A DNA stretch of 64,000 nt from assembly GCA_016867265.1 (NCBI GenBank), contig VGJW01000004.1, positions 1-64,000 on the forward strand. The letters run 5' to 3'. Within the stretch, counting starts at the first letter, position 1, and each line of letters opens with the position of its first letter. The position numbers and the translations under genes are program-made. Of this stretch, positions 42,351 to 51,294 are shown one piece after another. The notes beneath the pieces are model-generated. The model did no database searches, was not told where the DNA came from, and was given only the letters and a program-made list of their open reading frames with translations. The DNA comes from Candidatus Tanganyikabacteria bacterium (GTDB taxonomy: Bacteria; Cyanobacteriota; Sericytochromatia; S15B-MN24; VGJW01).

Positions 42351-43403
<1,053 letters not shown>

Positions 43404-43640: not shown

Positions 43641-44486
43641 GTGGCATCGATCAAGGATGCCCTGCCCACGAATGTGTTATCGGCTCCGGGGCCCCTGGTC
43701 TTGCTTGATTCCGGAGAAAGCGTGCGGAAAGACCGAGAACCGTACGACGGCTATGCCGGCATCTATGACCGGACGGGCCAGGGACGCTTTGGCTTGCGTA
43801 TGCTGCTGTGGGCGCGCGATTACTGGGCCGGAGCGTGGCCCGAGTCCGTGGTGGACGTGGCATGTGGCACGGGCCAAGTGGCCGTTGCTCTGGCCCTGCG
43901 CGGCGTCCGGACGGCCGGCGTGGATCGCTCGGAGGCCATGCTGGCCCGAGCATCCGACCGGGCCGAGAGGGCTGGAGTCGACGTACCATGGGTCCGGTCG
44001 GATCTGGCCGAATGCCCCGATGTCCCCGGCATGCCGTTCGATGCGGCCACCTGCTTCTATGACGCCCTCAACACTTGCCTTACTGAATCCGGGCTGGAGC
44101 GCTGCCTCGCCGGCATCGCCCGCCTCGTGCGCCCGGGCGGGGAGCTGGTGATGGACATGATCACCGACCATGGCATCCGGGAGGTCTGGGGCCACGGTGT
44201 CGAGCTGCGGGAGGCAGCCGGCATCCTCGGCGTCTGGCGCTCCGACTGGCATGCCTCACGTCGCGTCGGCACGCTGGATCTGTCCTACTTCGTCCGCAGT
44301 CCGGACGACCACTGGAAGCGTTTCGACGAACACCATGAACATCGGGGCTGGGACCCCGTCGAAGTGGGTGCTGCGCTGGCCGCGACGGGCTGGGAGTTGC
44401 TCCGCACGACCGAGGGCCTCTCCCTCGATCCGCCGACAGCCGACAGCTATCGCGTCGTGTACGTCGCCCGGAGAAGAGGACCCTGA
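43641..44486 (+). CDS. Class I SAM-dependent methyltransferase
   Basis: 281 residues. Rossmann methyltransferase: YDGYAGIYDRTGQGRFG opens the domain, VVDVACGTGQVAVALALRG is motif I, GVDRSEAMLARASD motif II, and LVRPGGELVMD a post-IV motif. Residues 33 to the end form the enzyme; the substrate is unknown. GTG 43641 has AGG six bases upstream; the first 33 residues look weakly structured, so a later start (GTG at 43720) is possible. It ends in TGATG where a mini-ORF begins and is the head of the kinase module. Confidence 0.88.
   Translation: MASIKDALPTNVLSAPGPLVLLDSGESVRKDREPYDGYAGIYDRTGQGRFGLRMLLWARDYWAGAWPESVVDVACGTGQVAVALALRGVRTAGVDRSEAMLARASDRAERAGVDVPWVRSDLAECPDVPGMPFDAATCFYDALNTCLTESGLERCLAGIARLVRPGGELVMDMITDHGIREVWGHGVELREAAGILGVWRSDWHASRRVGTLDLSYFVRSPDDHWKRFDEHHEHRGWDPVEVGAALAATGWELLRTTEGLSLDPPTADSYRVVYVARRRGP
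44476..44480 (+). promoter_or_regulatory. Ribosome binding site of the six-codon mini-ORF
   Basis: GAGGA, five bases before ATG 44486. It is the only ribosome site near, and the kinase ATG 44503 has none of its own. Confidence 0.55.
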
Positions 44487-44506
44487 TGCCGGGTCGTGCG
44501 CGATGA
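44486..44506 (+). CDS. Six-codon mini-ORF (MPGRAR) coupling the methyltransferase and kinase genes
   Basis: ATG 44486-44488 shares its A with the methyltransferase stop; the ORF ends with TGA at 44504-44506, which overlaps the kinase ATG at 44503 in ATGA. With a strong ribosome site in front and none for the kinase, ribosomes would reach the kinase only after translating this mini-ORF. The peptide is basic. Whether the coupling is regulated cannot be seen. Confidence 0.45.
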   Translation: MPGRAR

Positions 44507-45918
44507 ACCCGGTGCTTGCCGCCCTTGTCGTCCTGCTGCTCGCCTTCCCCGGCCTCGCTGTCGCAGCCGTTTCCGACGGAGATCCCCTGGGCAGGGCGCT
44601 GGCCATGGAGGCCGACGGGCGTCCCGGCGAGGGCTTGGCGTTGCTGGAGAGGGAAGGCAGTGTGCGGCGAGGCACGGAGGGGGCCGCGCTGATCCTGTCC
44701 GCGGCACGTATGGCCCTTCGGGCGGGAGACGAGGACGAGGCACGCAGGCTCGCGGGCGCTGCCCTGCCCGTCGCAACGGGCAACGGACGGGTCGCGCTCG
44801 AGGCGGCGCGCATCCTGCGTTCGGCAGGGGCACATCGGGAGGCATTGGCACTGGCAGCCCGAGCGGCATCGACAGACCCCACCGTCCGTTTCGCAGCCCA
44901 GGAACTGCAATTCGACATCATGGCCACGCTGCCCGGACGGCCGGCTACGCCGGGTGCACCGGGCGTGGCCTCGGTCCTTGCCGGCGCACTGGCCCTGCTC
45001 GCCATCCGGGCCTATTGGCCCCGCACGCCCGGAACGCCAAGGCATGTCCCCGGCACACCGCTCGAACTCGGCCAGCAGGTCGGTGACTGGGTCGTGGAGC
45101 GCGCCGTCAGTCAAAGCCTGCACGCGCGGCTGTTCCGAGGCCGCCATGTCCGCAACGGCACGCGCGTGGCCATCAAGCAGGCGCTCGTCGGCGGTCGGTC
45201 GGACGACCCGGCCTGGGCAAGATTTCGCCAGGAGATGAACACCCTCGAGGCCATTGGCCGGGACGAACCGGGAATCCCGAGGCTCGCGGGCACCTTCGGT
45301 CACGACATCATCATCAACGCCTGGGTCGAAGGTGAGACATTCGAGGCACTGGCTGGCAGGATCGCGTGGGACGAGGCCCTGGACATGGGGATCGCGACGG
45401 CTCGGACCTTGGCGCGCCTGCACGCACGGGGCGTCGTCCACCGGGACATCAAGCCCGCCAACCTGATCCGCGAGCAGGCCACCGGTAGCCCCATGCTGCT
45501 CGACTTCGGCCTTGCCCGGCTGGCAGCGGGCGAAGGTCTGACCATCGATGCCGCCCTGCCAATGGGCACCTTCGGGTTCATGGCACCGGAACAGTTCGCC
45601 TCGGCAAGCCAGGCCGGCCCCGCAGCCGACCAGTATGGCCTGGCCTTGACCCTGTACTGGCTGCTCACGGGGCGGATGCCGGCAGAACCCTGGCTCGGCC
45701 CGCGCACTTTCCAATACGTTCCTGCGGAAGCATTCCTGCCCCCGCAGCCACCGGCGGCCATACCCGGAGGCGAGCAGCCTTCACCGGATCGCGTGGCGGC
45801 CATCGGGGTCGTCCTCGCCCGCGCGTGGCAGGAACGGGCCGACGACAGGTTTCCGGACCTCGGCGCCTTCGCCGATGCATTGGAGCGCATTCGTTCCACC
45901 GGTCCCCGCCGGGTGTAG
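44503..45918 (+). CDS. Membrane Ser/Thr protein kinase with extracytoplasmic N-terminal domain
   Basis: 471 residues. Signal-like hydrophobic N-terminus (about 1-22), a helical repeat domain (about 25-140, resembling TPR), one membrane segment (about 150-172, GVASVLAGALALLAIRA), then a Hanks-type kinase (about 195-450). Lys225 in RVAIKQAL, HRD (313-315) in VVHRDIKPANL, DFG (334-336), and APEQFA all intact, so the kinase should be active. The order, sensor first and kinase last, is the reverse of the usual PknB layout. It lacks its own ribosome site. The NERD-pseudokinase gene starts 34 bases after its stop. Confidence 0.92.
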   Translation: MNPVLAALVVLLLAFPGLAVAAVSDGDPLGRALAMEADGRPGEGLALLEREGSVRRGTEGAALILSAARMALRAGDEDEARRLAGAALPVATGNGRVALEAARILRSAGAHREALALAARAASTDPTVRFAAQELQFDIMATLPGRPATPGAPGVASVLAGALALLAIRAYWPRTPGTPRHVPGTPLELGQQVGDWVVERAVSQSLHARLFRGRHVRNGTRVAIKQALVGGRSDDPAWARFRQEMNTLEAIGRDEPGIPRLAGTFGHDIIINAWVEGETFEALAGRIAWDEALDMGIATARTLARLHARGVVHRDIKPANLIREQATGSPMLLDFGLARLAAGEGLTIDAALPMGTFGFMAPEQFASASQAGPAADQYGLALTLYWLLTGRMPAEPWLGPRTFQYVPAEAFLPPQPPAAIPGGEQPSPDRVAAIGVVLARAWQERADDRFPDLGAFADALERIRSTGPRRV

Positions 45919-45952: not shown

Positions 45953-47308
45953 TTGGCCGAGATCATCGTCTCAGGCGAACCTGCCAATGCCTTCGAGAAG
46001 ACGGTGGCCCGCACGCTGGGGCATCTGCCCGACCCCTGCAAGGTCCTCACGAACCTCGTGCTGCCCAGCACGCAGAGCCGCTTCACGAACATCGAGATTG
46101 ACGCGGTGGTCCTGACGCCCCATGCCGTCTACGTCATCGAGGTCAAGTACTGGCAAGGAGAGGTCGAGGGCCACATCAATCGCAAGCATTGGCTGGTCCA
46201 TCGCGAAGGCCTCTCTCCCCATCAGGTCGAGAACCCCCTGCAGCGAACCGAAGTCAAGGCCAAGACGGTCAACACGATTCTTTCCCGCTGGCATCCGGGC
46301 CTGATGGGTCGGCTGCCCACCCGGGCGATGGTTGTCCTCCCTCCCCATACGCCTACCCGGGTGGACAATCCCACGGAGATCGTCTTGCTGGGCATCGAGG
46401 ACCTGCTTCCCCGTATCCAGGCGGATGCCGACCGCCTTGCCCACGAGGCCCGGCCGGAACAGCTGCCCCAGATGGTGGCGCTTCTGGCGGGTGAAGCCCA
46501 GGCAGGACTGCCCGCCCTGCCCTTTTCGAACCTCAAGGTCGACAAGGTTCTGTCGCAGCATGCGCGACGCCAGGCCTTCGCCGTCACGAATACCCTCACG
46601 GGACGCAAGCTCTTCGTGCGCCGCGTGCCTGGTGACGTCAACCTGGCCCCCCGGGCCGCGGACCTCGCCCGGGCGCGCGCAATCCGGGAAGCACGCGCGA
46701 CCATCGACCTGCGGCATCCCGGAGTCATTCCCGTGCTCGACGTGCTCGAGGAGCAAGGGGACATCTATATCCTGGCTCCGTGGATCGAGGGCAGGCCGGT
46801 GCTGGATTGCGTGCCCCCCGGGGATGCGACGGCAGCCTGCCGCCATGTCCGCGATGCCGCGCGTGTCCTCGCCGAGGTCCATCGCATGCAGCATGGCCTC
46901 GTGCATCGGAGCCTGACACCCGATTGCCTGCTGGTCACCGAACAGGGCATCCGCATCACGGGCTTCGGACTGGCCCGCGTGGCAGGCGACCCGACCATCG
47001 TCTTCGCCGACCTGATCGAAGACGAGGCCCTGCCCTATCTCGCCCCCGAACTGCTGCAGCCCGGCGTGGGGGAGCCGGACCCCCGGACCGACATCCACGG
47101 CCTCGGAGCCATTCTCTACCACCTGCTCTCCGGCCGAGCCCCCGTACCGTTCGTATCGAGGGAGCCACCCGTGCCAATAGCGAGCCTCGTCGCGATTCCC
47201 GAGGGACTCGCCGCGCTCGTGGCCGAGGCCACCCACCCGATACCCGGGCGGCGCCACGCGACGATGGACGCCTTGGCAGAAGCCCTCGGGCCCTACGCCG
47301 GGGGCTGA
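45953..47308 (+). CDS. NERD domain fused to a pseudokinase
   Basis: 451 residues, no signal or membrane segment. N-terminal NERD (nuclease-related) domain, about 8-125, with Glu15, Asp50 (NIEIDAVVL), Glu63 and Lys65 (VIEVKYW), the set expected for a PD-(D/E)xK-type site. From about 200 to 445 a protein-kinase-like domain whose catalytic residues are lost: the VAIK Lys position reads FVRRV, HRD reads HRS (318-320) and DFG reads GFG (337-339); the surrounding folds (GLVHRSLTPDCLLV, LIEDEALPYLAPELLQP) are clear. TTG start with CGGAG eight bases upstream. It overlaps the convergent ABC-F gene by 16 bases. Confidence 0.9.
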   Translation: MAEIIVSGEPANAFEKTVARTLGHLPDPCKVLTNLVLPSTQSRFTNIEIDAVVLTPHAVYVIEVKYWQGEVEGHINRKHWLVHREGLSPHQVENPLQRTEVKAKTVNTILSRWHPGLMGRLPTRAMVVLPPHTPTRVDNPTEIVLLGIEDLLPRIQADADRLAHEARPEQLPQMVALLAGEAQAGLPALPFSNLKVDKVLSQHARRQAFAVTNTLTGRKLFVRRVPGDVNLAPRAADLARARAIREARATIDLRHPGVIPVLDVLEEQGDIYILAPWIEGRPVLDCVPPGDATAACRHVRDAARVLAEVHRMQHGLVHRSLTPDCLLVTEQGIRITGFGLARVAGDPTIVFADLIEDEALPYLAPELLQPGVGEPDPRTDIHGLGAILYHLLSGRAPVPFVSREPPVPIASLVAIPEGLAALVAEATHPIPGRRHATMDALAEALGPYAGG

Positions 47309-49203
47309 CCGGCAGCCTCGGCTTCCTCGGCGAGTTCCAGCCAACGGGCCTCGAGTACGGCCTGCTCCCCCTCGAGGCGCGCCATCTCGCGCGCGGCTTC
47401 CCCTGCGTCCGGCCCGGGAACTCCCAGTCGGGCGAGGCAGGCGGCAAGGCCGGTCTCGACAGAGGCAAGCGCCGCCTCGACCTCGGCAACGGCCCGGGCA
47501 TGCCGGAACGCATTGAAGCGAACCTTGGGCGCCTGCTCCCTGAAGAGCTGCTGCGCGGGGCGGGACACAACCGTTCCCGCGGCGGGGAGCACACCCTGAT
47601 CCATGTGCTGGAACACCCGATCCCACGCATCGCCGTCCTCCAGATGGCGAAGGACCGGTCCGGGCCAGACGAGGGCGTGGGTCGCCACGGCCCGCAGCAA
47701 CCAGCGATCGTGGGACGAGAAAACGACGGCACCCTCGAACTGACAAAGCGCCTCAGCCAGCACCTCCCGTGCCCCCAGATCGAGATGGTTCGTGGGCTCG
47801 TCCAGCAACAGGGCGTGACGCGGGGAGAGCAACATGGCCGCCAAGGCAAGCCGTGCCCGTTCACCGCCAGAGAGCACGCCCGTCTTGCGATCGGCAGCCT
47901 CCCCCCGGAACAGGAACTCGGCGAGCAAGTCCCGCACATCCTGAACCGTCCAACCATCGGGCGCGGTCTCCCAGACATGGTCGAAGACGGTCTGATCGGG
48001 ACGGCTGGGCAACGGCGCGTGCTGGGCCAGGTAGCCGTGCGCGACACCTGAAGCCCACGCGACTGAACCGGCTCTCGGCTGCTCTTCCCCGGCAAGCAGG
48101 CGCAACAAAGTCGACTTCCCGGTGCCGTTGGCGCCTACAAGCGCGAGGCGCATGCCGCGCTCGAGCACGAGGTCGAGCCCCTGGAACACCTCTCGATCTC
48201 CGTAGCCGTGCGCAAGGCCCACCACACGGAGCACTTCCCTCGGTGCGCCTGCTGCGTCGCCGAGGTCCAACCGCAGGCGGGGCCCCTCGGCCTTGGCACG
48301 CACGACGCGAACCTCCCGCTCGAGCGCGCGTTCTCGGCTGCGGGCCTGGCTGCTCCGGCGGGCGGACGCCCGGAACCGTTCGATGAAACGACGCACCCGC
48401 GCATGTTCGCGATCCTGACGATCGGCAGCTGCGTCAAGAGCGGCATCCTCGGCCTCCCGCAGGGCGAGGTGGCGCGTGTAGTTGCCGACCCAGTCCCGGA
48501 CCTCGCCACGATCGACCGCCGTGACGCGGGTCGCCACGGCATCAAGGAACGTCCGATCGTGGGAAACCACCACGAGCCCCCAAGGGCGTTCGACCAGATA
48601 CCGCTCGAGCCAGGCAATGGCCGCGACATCCAGATGGTTGGTCGGCTCGTCGAGCAGCAAGACCTCCGGTGCTCCGATGAGCAGCCTGCCAAGCGCGGCC
48701 TTGACCCGCCAACCGCCCGAGAAGGCATCCATCGGGCGCGTCAGATCCTCGGGCGCGAACCCCAGGCCGTGGGCGACGCGACCGACGCGTGCGTCGGCAG
48801 TGTGGCCCTCGAGGCGCTCGAAGAGCTGCTGCAGGCGCTCCTGCTCGTGGATGCCCTCATCCAGAGCGGCGCCCTTCGCCGTCTGCAGCTTCTCGGCAAC
48901 GGCTTCGAGCGCCGAGGCCGCTGCCCGGACCTCGGGCAGCCCATCCCAGAGGACTTCCGACAGGGTCCTGCGGCCCAGATCGGGCGGTTCCTGGGGCAGC
49001 CAGCCCAGGCGCCACTGGGCCGGAAACTCGACCCGTCCGCAATCCGGTTGATCCGTACCGGCCAGCAAGCGCAGAAACGTGGTCTTGCCCGCACCATTCG
49101 GACCGACGAGTGCCACCCGCTCGCCTGGCAACAGCCGCCACGTCACGCCATCAAGAATGACCCGCTCGCCGTAGCCGCGGTGGACGTCCCGTAGGGAAAG
49201 CAA
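47293..49203 (-). CDS. ABC-F family ATPase
   Basis: 636 residues, two ABC domains and no membrane segments, so an ABC-F translation factor rather than a transporter. First domain: Walker A GPNGAGKTT, signature FSGGWRVKAALGRLL, Walker B VLLLDEPTNHLD. Linker about 240-320 with coiled-coil REHARVRRFIERFR. Second domain: Walker A GANGTGKST, signature LSGGERARLALAAML, Walker B LLLDEPTNHLD. C-terminal extension with coiled coil (about 555-630). Members relieve ribosome stalling or protect from antibiotics; which is not determinable. TTG start 49203; it lies 13 bases after prmC. Confidence 0.95.
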   Translation of the reverse strand: MLSLRDVHRGYGERVILDGVTWRLLPGERVALVGPNGAGKTTFLRLLAGTDQPDCGRVEFPAQWRLGWLPQEPPDLGRRTLSEVLWDGLPEVRAAASALEAVAEKLQTAKGAALDEGIHEQERLQQLFERLEGHTADARVGRVAHGLGFAPEDLTRPMDAFSGGWRVKAALGRLLIGAPEVLLLDEPTNHLDVAAIAWLERYLVERPWGLVVVSHDRTFLDAVATRVTAVDRGEVRDWVGNYTRHLALREAEDAALDAAADRQDREHARVRRFIERFRASARRSSQARSRERALEREVRVVRAKAEGPRLRLDLGDAAGAPREVLRVVGLAHGYGDREVFQGLDLVLERGMRLALVGANGTGKSTLLRLLAGEEQPRAGSVAWASGVAHGYLAQHAPLPSRPDQTVFDHVWETAPDGWTVQDVRDLLAEFLFRGEAADRKTGVLSGGERARLALAAMLLSPRHALLLDEPTNHLDLGAREVLAEALCQFEGAVVFSSHDRWLLRAVATHALVWPGPVLRHLEDGDAWDRVFQHMDQGVLPAAGTVVSRPAQQLFREQAPKVRFNAFRHARAVAEVEAALASVETGLAACLARLGVPGPDAGEAAREMARLEGEQAVLEARWLELAEEAEAAGQPPA

Positions 49204-49216
49204 CCCGGTTCCGGAC

Positions 49217-50128
49217 TCAGACCTGTGCGGATCGGGCCAGGACCACCCGCTCGATGCCCGCGAGGTCGTGTCGCACCTGTACCGAAGGCCAGCCCTCGAG
49301 CAGGTCCATCACCCTCGGGGCCTGACCGGCCATGACCTCGAGCGCCAGCCATCCGCCGGGCTTGAGGACCTGCTCGACCTCGGCCACGAGGCGACGGATG
49401 AGGGCAAGACCGTCAAAGCCCCCGTCAAGGGCCATGCGCGGCTCGTAGTCCCGGACCTCGGGCTCCAGGCCCTCGATGTCGACTGAGGGTATGTAGGGCA
49501 GGTTCGCGACCACGTAATCGAAGACCCGCCCGCCGCCGACGACGGGTTCGAGCAGATCCCCCAGGACAAAGCGGAGACGATCGGCGACTCCCAGGCGCTC
49601 CGCGTTACAGCGCGCGCGTTCGAGTGCCTCGGGCGAGCAGTCGACACCCGTCCCCTCAAGGACGCGGATATAGTTGGCGAGGGTCACCAGGATGGCCCCG
49701 GAACCGGTCCCGACATCGAGCACCCTCGGCCCCGACTCCTGCGTTCCGGCATCCTCGACCAGATCAAGGACGGCCTCGACCAGAATTTCGGTTTCGGGCC
49801 TCGGGATCAGGACCGCCGCATCCACGGCGAAATCCAGCGACATGAACTCCTGGCTTCCGACAAGGTACTGGAAGGGCTCGCGCGCTTCGCGACGCTTCAG
49901 CAAGAGGTCGTAGGTCGTCCACTCTTCGGCGGTGATGGCCCGTGCCGTATTCAGGATGAGTTCGAGGCGTGCGAGGCCCGTGGCCCGCCCGAGCAGCAAG
50001 GAGGCCTCGAGGTCGGCAGAAGGCATGTCGAGGCGCCTCAGGCGGCGACTGCCGAGGCGCAAGGCGGAGCCCAGGTCGGGCGGAGGTAAGGTGGCCGTCA
50101 CAAGGCCTGTCATGTACCCCACACGCAC
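49217..50128 (-). CDS. prmC: Release-factor glutamine methyltransferase
   Basis: About 303 residues from GTG 50128 (ATG 50113 is an alternative). Methylates the GGQ glutamine of release factors; it directly follows prfA, its substrate gene, on the same strand. N-terminal helical domain (1-95), then the methyltransferase fold with VLIPRPETEILVEAVLDL, LDVGTGSGAILVTLA (motif I) and VVANLPYIPS. The catalytic tetrad reads NLPY (209-212) where NPPY is more common, a known minor variant, as Asn, Pro and Tyr are kept. Confidence 0.96.
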   Translation of the reverse strand: MRVGYMTGLVTATLPPPDLGSALRLGSRRLRRLDMPSADLEASLLLGRATGLARLELILNTARAITAEEWTTYDLLLKRREAREPFQYLVGSQEFMSLDFAVDAAVLIPRPETEILVEAVLDLVEDAGTQESGPRVLDVGTGSGAILVTLANYIRVLEGTGVDCSPEALERARCNAERLGVADRLRFVLGDLLEPVVGGGRVFDYVVANLPYIPSVDIEGLEPEVRDYEPRMALDGGFDGLALIRRLVAEVEQVLKPGGWLALEVMAGQAPRVMDLLEGWPSVQVRHDLAGIERVVLARSAQV

Positions 50129-50151: not shown

Positions 50152-51261
50152 TTAGAATCCGGATTCCGCCGCCGTGAGGCGGGCCAGTTGCTCCGCCTGG
50201 TCCGCTGCGATCAAGGGTTCGATGACCATGTCCATCTCGCCGTTCAACAGATCGGACAAGGCATGGACCGTGAGCTTGATCCGGTGGTCGGACACCCTGT
50301 TCTCGGGAAAGTTGTAGGTCCTGATCCGCTCGGATCGATCGCCCGTGCCGACCTGGCTGCGACGCGCGGCCGCCTGCTCGTTGGCGGCGCGCTGGTCCTC
50401 GATGTCCTTGAGCCTCGTCCGCAACAGCAGCATGGCCTTCTCGCGATTCTGATGCTGGCTGCGTTCATCCTGGCAGGCCACCGCGAGGCCAGACGGCACA
50501 TGGGTGATGCGGACGGCCGTCTCGACCTTGTTGACGTTCTGGCCGCCGGCCCCCCCCGCGCGAAACGTATCGATCACGAGATCCTTGGGGTTGATGGTGA
50601 CGTCGACCTCCTCGGCTTCCGGCATGATGGCCACTGTCGCCGCCGAGGTATGGATGCGGCCGGAGGCTTCCGTCACGGGAACCCTCTGGACACGGTGAAC
50701 GCCGGATTCGTACTTCATCCGCGAGTAGACCCGGTCCCCCTTGATCGCGAGGATGGCCTCCTTGAAACCACCAAGGTCCATCTCGCTGACGCTCAGCAAC
50801 TCGACCTTCCAGCCACGGCCCTCCGCGTACATGCGGTACATGCGGACAAGGTCCCCGGCAAACAGCGCCGCCTCGTCGCCGCCAGTGCCGGCCCGGACCT
50901 CGAGGACGATATTCCGCTCGTCCATCGGGTCACGCGGCAGTAGCAGGATGGTGAGATGCTTCTCAAGGGCGTTCAGGCGACCTTCGAGATCGGCAATCTC
51001 GGCTTCCACCATCTCGCGCATGTCCGCGTCCTGCTCGGATCGACGAAGCTCGAGCGCCCCGTCCAACTGACGCCGAAGGTCTTGCCACGCCCCGTAGGAG
51101 TCGACCGTCTCCTCGAGTGAGGCGCGCGACTTGGCGTAGTCCCGGTAGCGACCGGCATCCGAAAGGACATCAGGATCGGCCATCAGGAGGCCCAGATCAT
51201 CGTAGGTCTTGACGATCCCGGCCAACTTCTCTTCCTGGAGGCGTTCCAGCATGGTGCCCAT
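50152..51261 (-). CDS. prfA: Peptide chain release factor 1
   Basis: About 369 residues from ATG 51261, which has GGGG four to five bases upstream; ATG 51279 adds six residues. Terminates at UAA and UAG. PVT tripeptide (195-197 in [16 protein letters not shown]) identifies RF1, and the GGQ loop is at 239-241 ([11 protein letters not shown]) in the peptidyl-transferase-reaching domain. [16 protein letters not shown] marks domain 2. It begins the minus-strand prfA-prmC-ABC-F run. Confidence 0.97.
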
Positions 51262-51294
51262 GATACCCCGACGGGACATGGCCCGTGTCCCCGA

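What the first reader, a model, noticed from the sequence alone, without database searches (positions are those of the whole stretch)
45953..47308. NERD nuclease-like domain fused to a catalytically dead kinase, beside an active membrane kinase
The sequence shows an apparently intact PD-(D/E)xK set (Glu15, Asp50, Glu63, Lys65) in front of a kinase fold with VAIK, HRD and DFG all altered (FVRRV, HRS, GFG). It directly follows an intact membrane kinase (44503-45918) and a methyltransferase. NERD domains are known to occur with kinases and helicases; a pseudokinase partner of a real kinase would make a regulated nuclease or DNA-linked signalling module. Function is inference.
Basis: partly seen in the sequence, partly recalled or inferred. 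Interest (0 to 1): 0.72.

Follow-up and report, generated by a model that had tools for sequence, protein, structure and literature searches.

The report
Membrane kinase paired with nuclease-like pseudokinase
In a little-known non-photosynthetic sister group of the cyanobacteria, a membrane sensor kinase and a dead-kinase protein carrying an intact-looking nuclease domain are kept, lost and changed together as a pair, which looks like a two-gene version of a module otherwise known as one large protein in phage-defence systems.

Summary
Window 45953-47308 encodes a 451-aa protein with a NERD domain (E15, D50, E63, K65 intact) followed by a kinase fold that has lost HRD-Asp and DFG-Asp. Orthologues exist in seven other Sericytochromatia genomes. 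All seven full-length sequences are dead at both aspartates, and all eight keep the four NERD residues. Every copy lies directly behind a TPR-TM kinase (44503-45918) with intact VAIK, HRD and DFG. The two kinases occur together in 8 of 18 class genomes and neither occurs in the other 10. In the window's lineage both sped up 2-3x while their neighbours did not. The methyltransferase is separable: in a sister family it stays beside the sigma gene without the kinases, and it did not speed up. The pseudokinase is sister to one inside a fused NERD-pseudokinase-kinase-TM protein next to uvrB in relatives. PglW (BREX type 2) and some DndF proteins carry the same NERD-pseudokinase-kinase order fused. 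Best reading: a split, membrane-anchored variant of that module, in which the receptor kinase controls a NERD effector through the pseudokinase. It sits in a fixed chromosomal place rather than a defence island. Nuclease activity, binding and phosphorylation are inferred. New variant of a known kind.

The parts
45953..47308 (+). NERD-pseudokinase protein, 451 aa, TTG start
45953..46492 (+). NERD (PD-(D/E)xK-like) domain, residues 1-180; E15 (45995-45997), D50 (46100-46102), E63 (46139-46141), K65 (46145-46147) invariant in 8 orthologues
   Evidence: Pfam PF08378 1e-16; alignments
46520..47305 (+). Pseudokinase domain, residues 190-451
   Evidence: Pfam Pkinase 4e-14; AlphaFold2 and Foldseek to PknB
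46619..46621 (+). beta-3 Lys position, Arg223 here, Lys in the 6 other full-length orthologues
46904..46912 (+). HRD replaced by HRS (HRN in the 6 other full-length orthologues)
46961..46969 (+). DFG replaced by GFG (NF[ASN] in orthologues)
46985..46999 (+). Conserved activation-segment motif GDP[ST]I, candidate docking or phosphorylation site (inference)
   Evidence: conservation; low pLDDT 339-358
44503..45918 (+). Membrane Ser/Thr kinase, 471 aa: N-terminal hydrophobic/signal segment, helical TPR-like region, TM, kinase
   Evidence: Pfam Pkinase 3e-22, alignment A2, AlphaFold2
44584..44928 (+). Helical TPR-like region, presumed extracytoplasmic
   Evidence: AlphaFold2 helices 28-142; weak Pfam TPR_19 0.029
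44965..45012 (+). Hydrophobic helix, presumed transmembrane
   Evidence: sequence and helix 155-170
45166..45510 (+). Kinase catalytic motifs VAIK (45166-45177), HRD (45439-45447), DFG (45502-45510), intact
43641..44486 (+). Class I SAM methyltransferase; conserved neighbour, judged not part of the kinase pair
   Evidence: Pfam Methyltransf_25 4e-19; kept beside sigma without the kinases in two relatives; no acceleration
42351..43403 (-). Divergent RpoD-like sigma factor, flank of the conserved locus
49217..50128 (-). prmC, downstream flank of the conserved locus (followed by prfA 50152-51279)

Best explanation
The two adjacent genes 44503-45918 and 45953-47308 form one signalling unit: a split, membrane-anchored version of the NERD-pseudokinase-kinase module that PglW and some DndF proteins carry in one chain. 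The TPR-TM kinase senses a signal at the cell envelope. Its cytoplasmic kinase domain pairs with, and probably phosphorylates, the pseudokinase domain of the second protein. The pseudokinase acts as an adaptor and switch that holds or releases the attached NERD domain, which probably cuts or binds nucleic acid. It is a fixed chromosomal, vertically inherited unit of this lineage rather than part of a BREX, Dnd or MADS defence island. The methyltransferase next door belongs to the older sigma-factor neighbourhood. Shown: domains, motif loss and retention, order, co-occurrence, matched acceleration, fused relatives. Inferred: physical contact, phosphorylation, nuclease activity, nature of the signal.
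For: Order sigma | MT - TPR kinase - NERD-pseudokinase is conserved in 8 genomes of three families (the sigma gene lies off the short contig of one), with prmC following in the genomes where it was found. Kinase and NERD-pseudokinase orthologues occur in the same 8 of 18 class genomes and neither occurs in the other 10. In two genomes of a fourth family of the order the sigma-MT pair is kept and both kinases are absent. In the window lineage the pair sped up together (membrane kinase 1.95-2.28x, NERD 2.90x, pseudokinase 2.81x) while sigma, prfA, prmC and MT stayed at 1.12-1.28x. The split pseudokinase is sister (94/79) to the first kinase domain of a fused NERD-pseudokinase-kinase-TM-ectodomain protein beside uvrB in relatives. 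PglW and some DndF have the same three domains fused (PMC12839542; PMC4365076), and a true PglW from relative G002 shows the same dead-then-live order. NERD catalytic residues are invariant in the split form, PglW and defence NERD kinases but decay in the fused uvrB-linked form. The NERD half is the most conserved part, 82% against 63% identity for the pseudokinase in G009-G004. No PglZ in the window genome and in only 1 of the 8 carriers.
Against: The partner kinase of the split form does not group clearly with the fused kinase 2, so the fused protein is a parallel rather than proof of direct descent by fission. Co-occurrence may reflect a single gain or loss event (tree unresolved). No NERD domain has been shown to be a nuclease in the papers found here. 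The membrane kinase lacks a normal glycine loop, so its activity is likely but not certain. No interface was modelled.
Confidence: 0.6

Rival explanations
1. It is an anti-phage defence unit: a reduced PglW/DndF-like abortive-infection effector in which NERD attacks DNA when the kinase senses infection.
For: Closest family models are defence proteins: MAD6 NF047741 (1.9e-51, 175 bits) and PglW NF033442 (4e-26); PADLOC hits to PD-T4-6, PglW, mad6; NERD-kinase genes elsewhere sit in defence-like operons.
Against: Far below the MAD6 (460) and PglW (990) cut-offs; neighbours are sigma factor, prmC and prfA; fixed position and vertical pattern across three families; no PglZ in the window genome; no DNA-modifying partner; the MT matches small-molecule or protein type SAM methyltransferase families, not DNA methylases.
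Confidence: 0.2
2. The NERD domain is a non-catalytic scaffold or DNA/membrane tether, and the pair is a purely protein-phosphorylation pathway.
For: The fused uvrB-linked relatives keep the domain order while losing the NERD catalytic residues; SmdA in Staphylococcus has a NERD domain lacking several conserved residues and acts in cell shape (PMC9040797).
Against: All four catalytic residues are invariant in 8 split-form orthologues even in the fast-evolving window lineage, and NERD is more conserved than the pseudokinase.
Confidence: 0.2
3. In the window's own lineage the system is decaying and no longer functional.
For: 2-3x faster evolution of both genes, loss of beta-3 Lys, and the uvrB-linked paralogue reduced to a 370-aa remnant in this genome.
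Against: Both frames are intact, all NERD and active-kinase motifs are kept, and both genes changed in step; decay usually breaks frames or catalytic motifs first.
Confidence: 0.12
4. Three-gene module including the methyltransferase.
For: MT precedes the pair in all 8 genomes.
Against: MT stays with sigma in the sister family without the kinases and did not accelerate with them.
Confidence: 0.1

Closest known systems
PglW (BREX type 2 / Pgl system)
   Same: NERD, then pseudokinase, then active kinase; the pseudokinase has lost HRD-Asp (HRS in relative G002), NERD residues intact
   Different: PglW is one soluble 1400-1600 aa chain with wHTH and iSTAND C-terminus in a BREX operon; here two genes, kinase membrane-anchored with TPR-like region, no C-terminal DNA-binding part, no PglZ in the window genome
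DndF subset with NERD-pseudokinase-kinase (DndFGH)
   Same: Same three-domain order as reported in PMC12839542
   Different: No Dnd-type neighbours here; no P-loop kinase-like domain
MAD6 (NF047741, MADS defence kinase)
   Same: Best family match, aligned over residues 2-446 (E 1.9e-51)
   Different: 175 bits against a cut-off of 460; no other MADS genes nearby; the match stops about 150 positions before the model's C-terminus; HRD and DFG lost
uvrB-linked NERD-pseudokinase-kinase-TM protein of Sericytochromatia (found here)
   Same: Sister pseudokinase; membrane-anchored; same domain order
   Different: Fused, NERD catalytic residues mostly lost, other ectodomain, next to uvrB
CP1 pseudokinases (cyanobacteria, proteobacteria; PMC12599244)
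   Same: Bacterial Ser/Thr pseudokinases with varied motif loss
   Different: CP1 pseudokinases are all linked to a COG3899 ATPase domain; none here

Membership tests
NERD domain (PF08378) | Score above Pfam cut-off (22.1 bits) | tested here: met
   61.9 bits
NERD domain (PF08378) | PD-(D/E)xK residues E-D-ExK present | tested here: met
   E15, D50, E63, K65 invariant in 8 orthologues and aligned with PglW and defence NERDs
NERD domain (PF08378) | Nuclease activity | not testable with these tools
   Needs an assay
Protein-kinase-fold pseudokinase | Kinase fold | tested here: met
   Pfam 53.1 bits against 31.7; Foldseek to PknB, TM about 0.70-0.74 by target
Protein-kinase-fold pseudokinase | Loss of at least one of beta-3 Lys, HRD-Asp, DFG-Asp | tested here: met
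   HRD-Asp and DFG-Asp lost in all 7 full-length orthologues; beta-3 Lys lost in the window only
PglW | NF033442 cut-off (990 bits) | tested here: not met
   91 bits
PglW | NERD-pseudokinase-kinase in one chain with C-terminal DNA-binding and iSTAND half | tested here: not met
   451 aa, kinase encoded by separate gene
PglW | BREX type 2 neighbours (PglZ, PglX, BrxC) | tested here: not met
   No PglZ in the window genome; neighbours housekeeping
MAD6 / MADS | NF047741 cut-off (460 bits) | tested here: not met
   175 bits
MADS | Full Mad1-8 neighbourhood | tested here: not met
   Neighbouring genes inspected; only a partial SAM-domain match of the MT to mad2
DndF with NERD-kinases | DndFGH operon and P-loop domain | tested here: not met
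   No such domain in the 451 aa; neighbours inspected

The most novel reading that the evidence does not exclude
A transmembrane receptor kinase controls a nuclease in trans through a pseudokinase adaptor as a normal (non-defence) signalling pathway, linking an envelope signal to DNA; the same lineage also has a fused form tied to uvrB, suggesting that NERD-pseudokinase-kinase modules have a genome-maintenance role outside phage defence.
Probability: 0.3. Interest if true: 0.75.

Novelty: new variant of a known kind. Interest (0 to 1): 0.52.

Why it matters
What the pseudokinase and NERD domains do in PglW and DndF is unknown. A two-gene version lets receptor, pseudokinase and NERD be expressed, mutated and mixed separately, so that a long-standing question becomes directly testable. 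It also shows the module outside defence islands, and gives a natural contrast: the split form keeps the NERD catalytic residues, the fused uvrB-linked form loses them.

Tried and rejected
Single-protein scan of genome contigs found no relative; the alignment scan found five Sericytochromatia-type orthologue loci and otherwise only weak, partial relatives. Plasmid tblastn found no NERD-pseudokinase covering 80% of the query, only kinases or NERD pieces; the best NERD hit belongs to a 1391-aa kinase in a DNA-methylase operon. A second NERD hit in the window genome (C4:152122) is a UPF0102 protein, not a NERD-kinase. Considered and rejected: one-genome decay as the origin of the dead motifs (all orthologues are dead), MADS or BREX membership, the MT as a DNA methylase. 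A tree to decide gain or loss of the pair was unresolved. Kwon et al. 2019 on pseudokinases is not held.

Full report
Observation. The ORF at 45953-47308 encodes 451 aa. Pfam gives NERD (12-129, 1e-16) and Pkinase (240-399, 4e-14). The TTG start is supported by exact N-terminal alignment with orthologues and by GGAG upstream. AlphaFold2 with seven sequences gave mean pLDDT 77, and Foldseek placed the C-terminal part on PknB-type kinases (E 1.7e-16).

Relatives. The genome belongs to Candidatus Sericytochromatia-type bacteria: orthologue loci in named records are S15B-MN24, UBA8530, a groundwater Cyanobacteria MAG and two unnamed MAGs. Orthologues (about 45-56% identical) occur in seven other genomes of three families of the order, and not in a fourth family of the order, the rest of the class, or the rest of the phylum sample. 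In all seven full-length sequences HRD-Asp is N or S and DFG-Asp is N or G. In all eight the four NERD residues are invariant. The other six full-length sequences still have the beta-3 lysine, so nucleotide binding without phosphotransfer is possible in them; the window has Arg.

Partner kinase. The upstream gene has an N-terminal hydrophobic segment, a helical TPR-like region, a hydrophobic helix and a kinase domain. VAIK, HRD and DFG are intact, but the glycine loop is replaced by V[SG]xSLHSxLY in all copies. Orthologues (609 to 862 bits; in two frame-shifted pieces in G001) are in exactly the 8 genomes that have the NERD-pseudokinase; the other ten class genomes give only generic kinase matches of about 160 bits or less. 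The gap between the two genes is 1-226 bases, all co-directional.

Locus. A divergent RpoD-like sigma gene, then MT, kinase and NERD-pseudokinase is the constant order, with prmC and usually prfA beyond (in the short contig of G003 only MT, kinase and NERD part are visible, and in G005 prmC was not found). In the window an ABC-F gene lies between the cassette and prmC. In two genomes of a fourth family of the order the sigma gene and MT are neighbours but neither kinase gene is there. Thus the two kinases come or go as a pair and the MT is separable. Whether this is one gain or one loss is unresolved.

Matched rates. Distances to family f3, window against its siblings: sigma 1.13x, prfA 1.12x, prmC 1.22x, MT 1.28x, membrane kinase 1.95x (its kinase domain 2.28x), NERD 2.90x, pseudokinase 2.81x. 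Only the pair accelerated. In the other genomes the NERD-pseudokinase is very well conserved (G009-G004: NERD 82%, pseudokinase 63%, against prmC 54%).

Fused relatives. In nine relatives of the order a tandem-kinase gene was found, in eight of them beside an identified uvrB on the same stretch (L050 shows no uvrB match, its contig being short; L048 carries only a 52-residue end of uvrB). Six of the nine have an N-terminal NERD-like domain: NERD - kinase 1 (HRN or HRD, DFG altered in most) - kinase 2 (HRD in most) - TM - C-terminal domain. Its NERD has lost ExK in five of six sequences aligned, and shorter class-wide relatives have lost most of the four residues. The kinase-domain tree puts the split pseudokinase as sister to this kinase 1 (94/79); the placing of the membrane kinase is unresolved. 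In the window genome the uvrB-linked gene is a 370-aa remnant with what reads as a kinase C-lobe fragment, a TM and the C-terminal domain; Pfam gives it no confident domain.

Known systems. PglW is described as NERD, inactive pseudokinase, active kinase, then wHTH and iSTAND domains, and a subset of DndF shares the first three (PMC12839542). In Streptomyces PglW only the second kinase has the catalytic site, K677A abolishes resistance and the protein autophosphorylates (PMC4365076). Relative G002 carries a true PglW (1476 bits) in a separate locus with a PglZ match, so the split cassette is not simply that genome's PglW. Scores to MAD6 and PglW models are far below their cut-offs.

Mechanism. 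The best reading is a receptor kinase and a NERD effector joined through a pseudokinase. Its confident part is the pairing; its weaker parts are nuclease activity, phosphorylation and the signal. The conserved activation-segment motif GDP[ST]I of the pseudokinase is a candidate contact or phosphorylation site (inference).

Noticed in passing
L043-L051 (relatives), e.g. L047:7873-10776, L044:3886-6702: A fused NERD-pseudokinase-kinase-TM-ectodomain gene (NERD missing in three) follows uvrB in relatives of the order; similar tandem-kinase genes follow uvrB in class members L013, L017, L018. Unexplained link of a membrane kinase with nucleotide-excision repair.
   Followed up: partly
L115:7119-8231 (window genome, contig C5): Apparent remnant of that uvrB-linked gene in the window genome: kinase C-lobe-like fragment, TM and C-terminal domain only, 370 aa.
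   Followed up: partly
window 44503-45918 and L035-L041: The membrane kinase lacks the glycine-rich loop in all orthologues, replaced by a conserved V[SG]xSLHSxLY motif, though VAIK, HRD and DFG are intact.
   Followed up: no
L066:486-15061 (G002): A BREX type 2 like locus with PglW and a PglZ match in a relative that also carries the split cassette.
   Followed up: partly
window 47293-49203: An ABC-F ATPase gene lies between the cassette and prmC in the window genome but not in the relatives examined; its 3' end overlaps that of the NERD-pseudokinase by 16 bases.
   Followed up: no
L068:3249-19901 (G011): NERD-pseudokinase-kinase gene of 1430 aa in a locus with a PAPS-reductase-like gene and a large ATPase-like gene; looks like a BREX type 4 or Dnd-type defence island.
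   Followed up: no
G000:C4:152122-152271: Second NERD hit in the window genome is a UPF0102 protein, a reminder that PF08378 cross-hits this family.
   Followed up: yes
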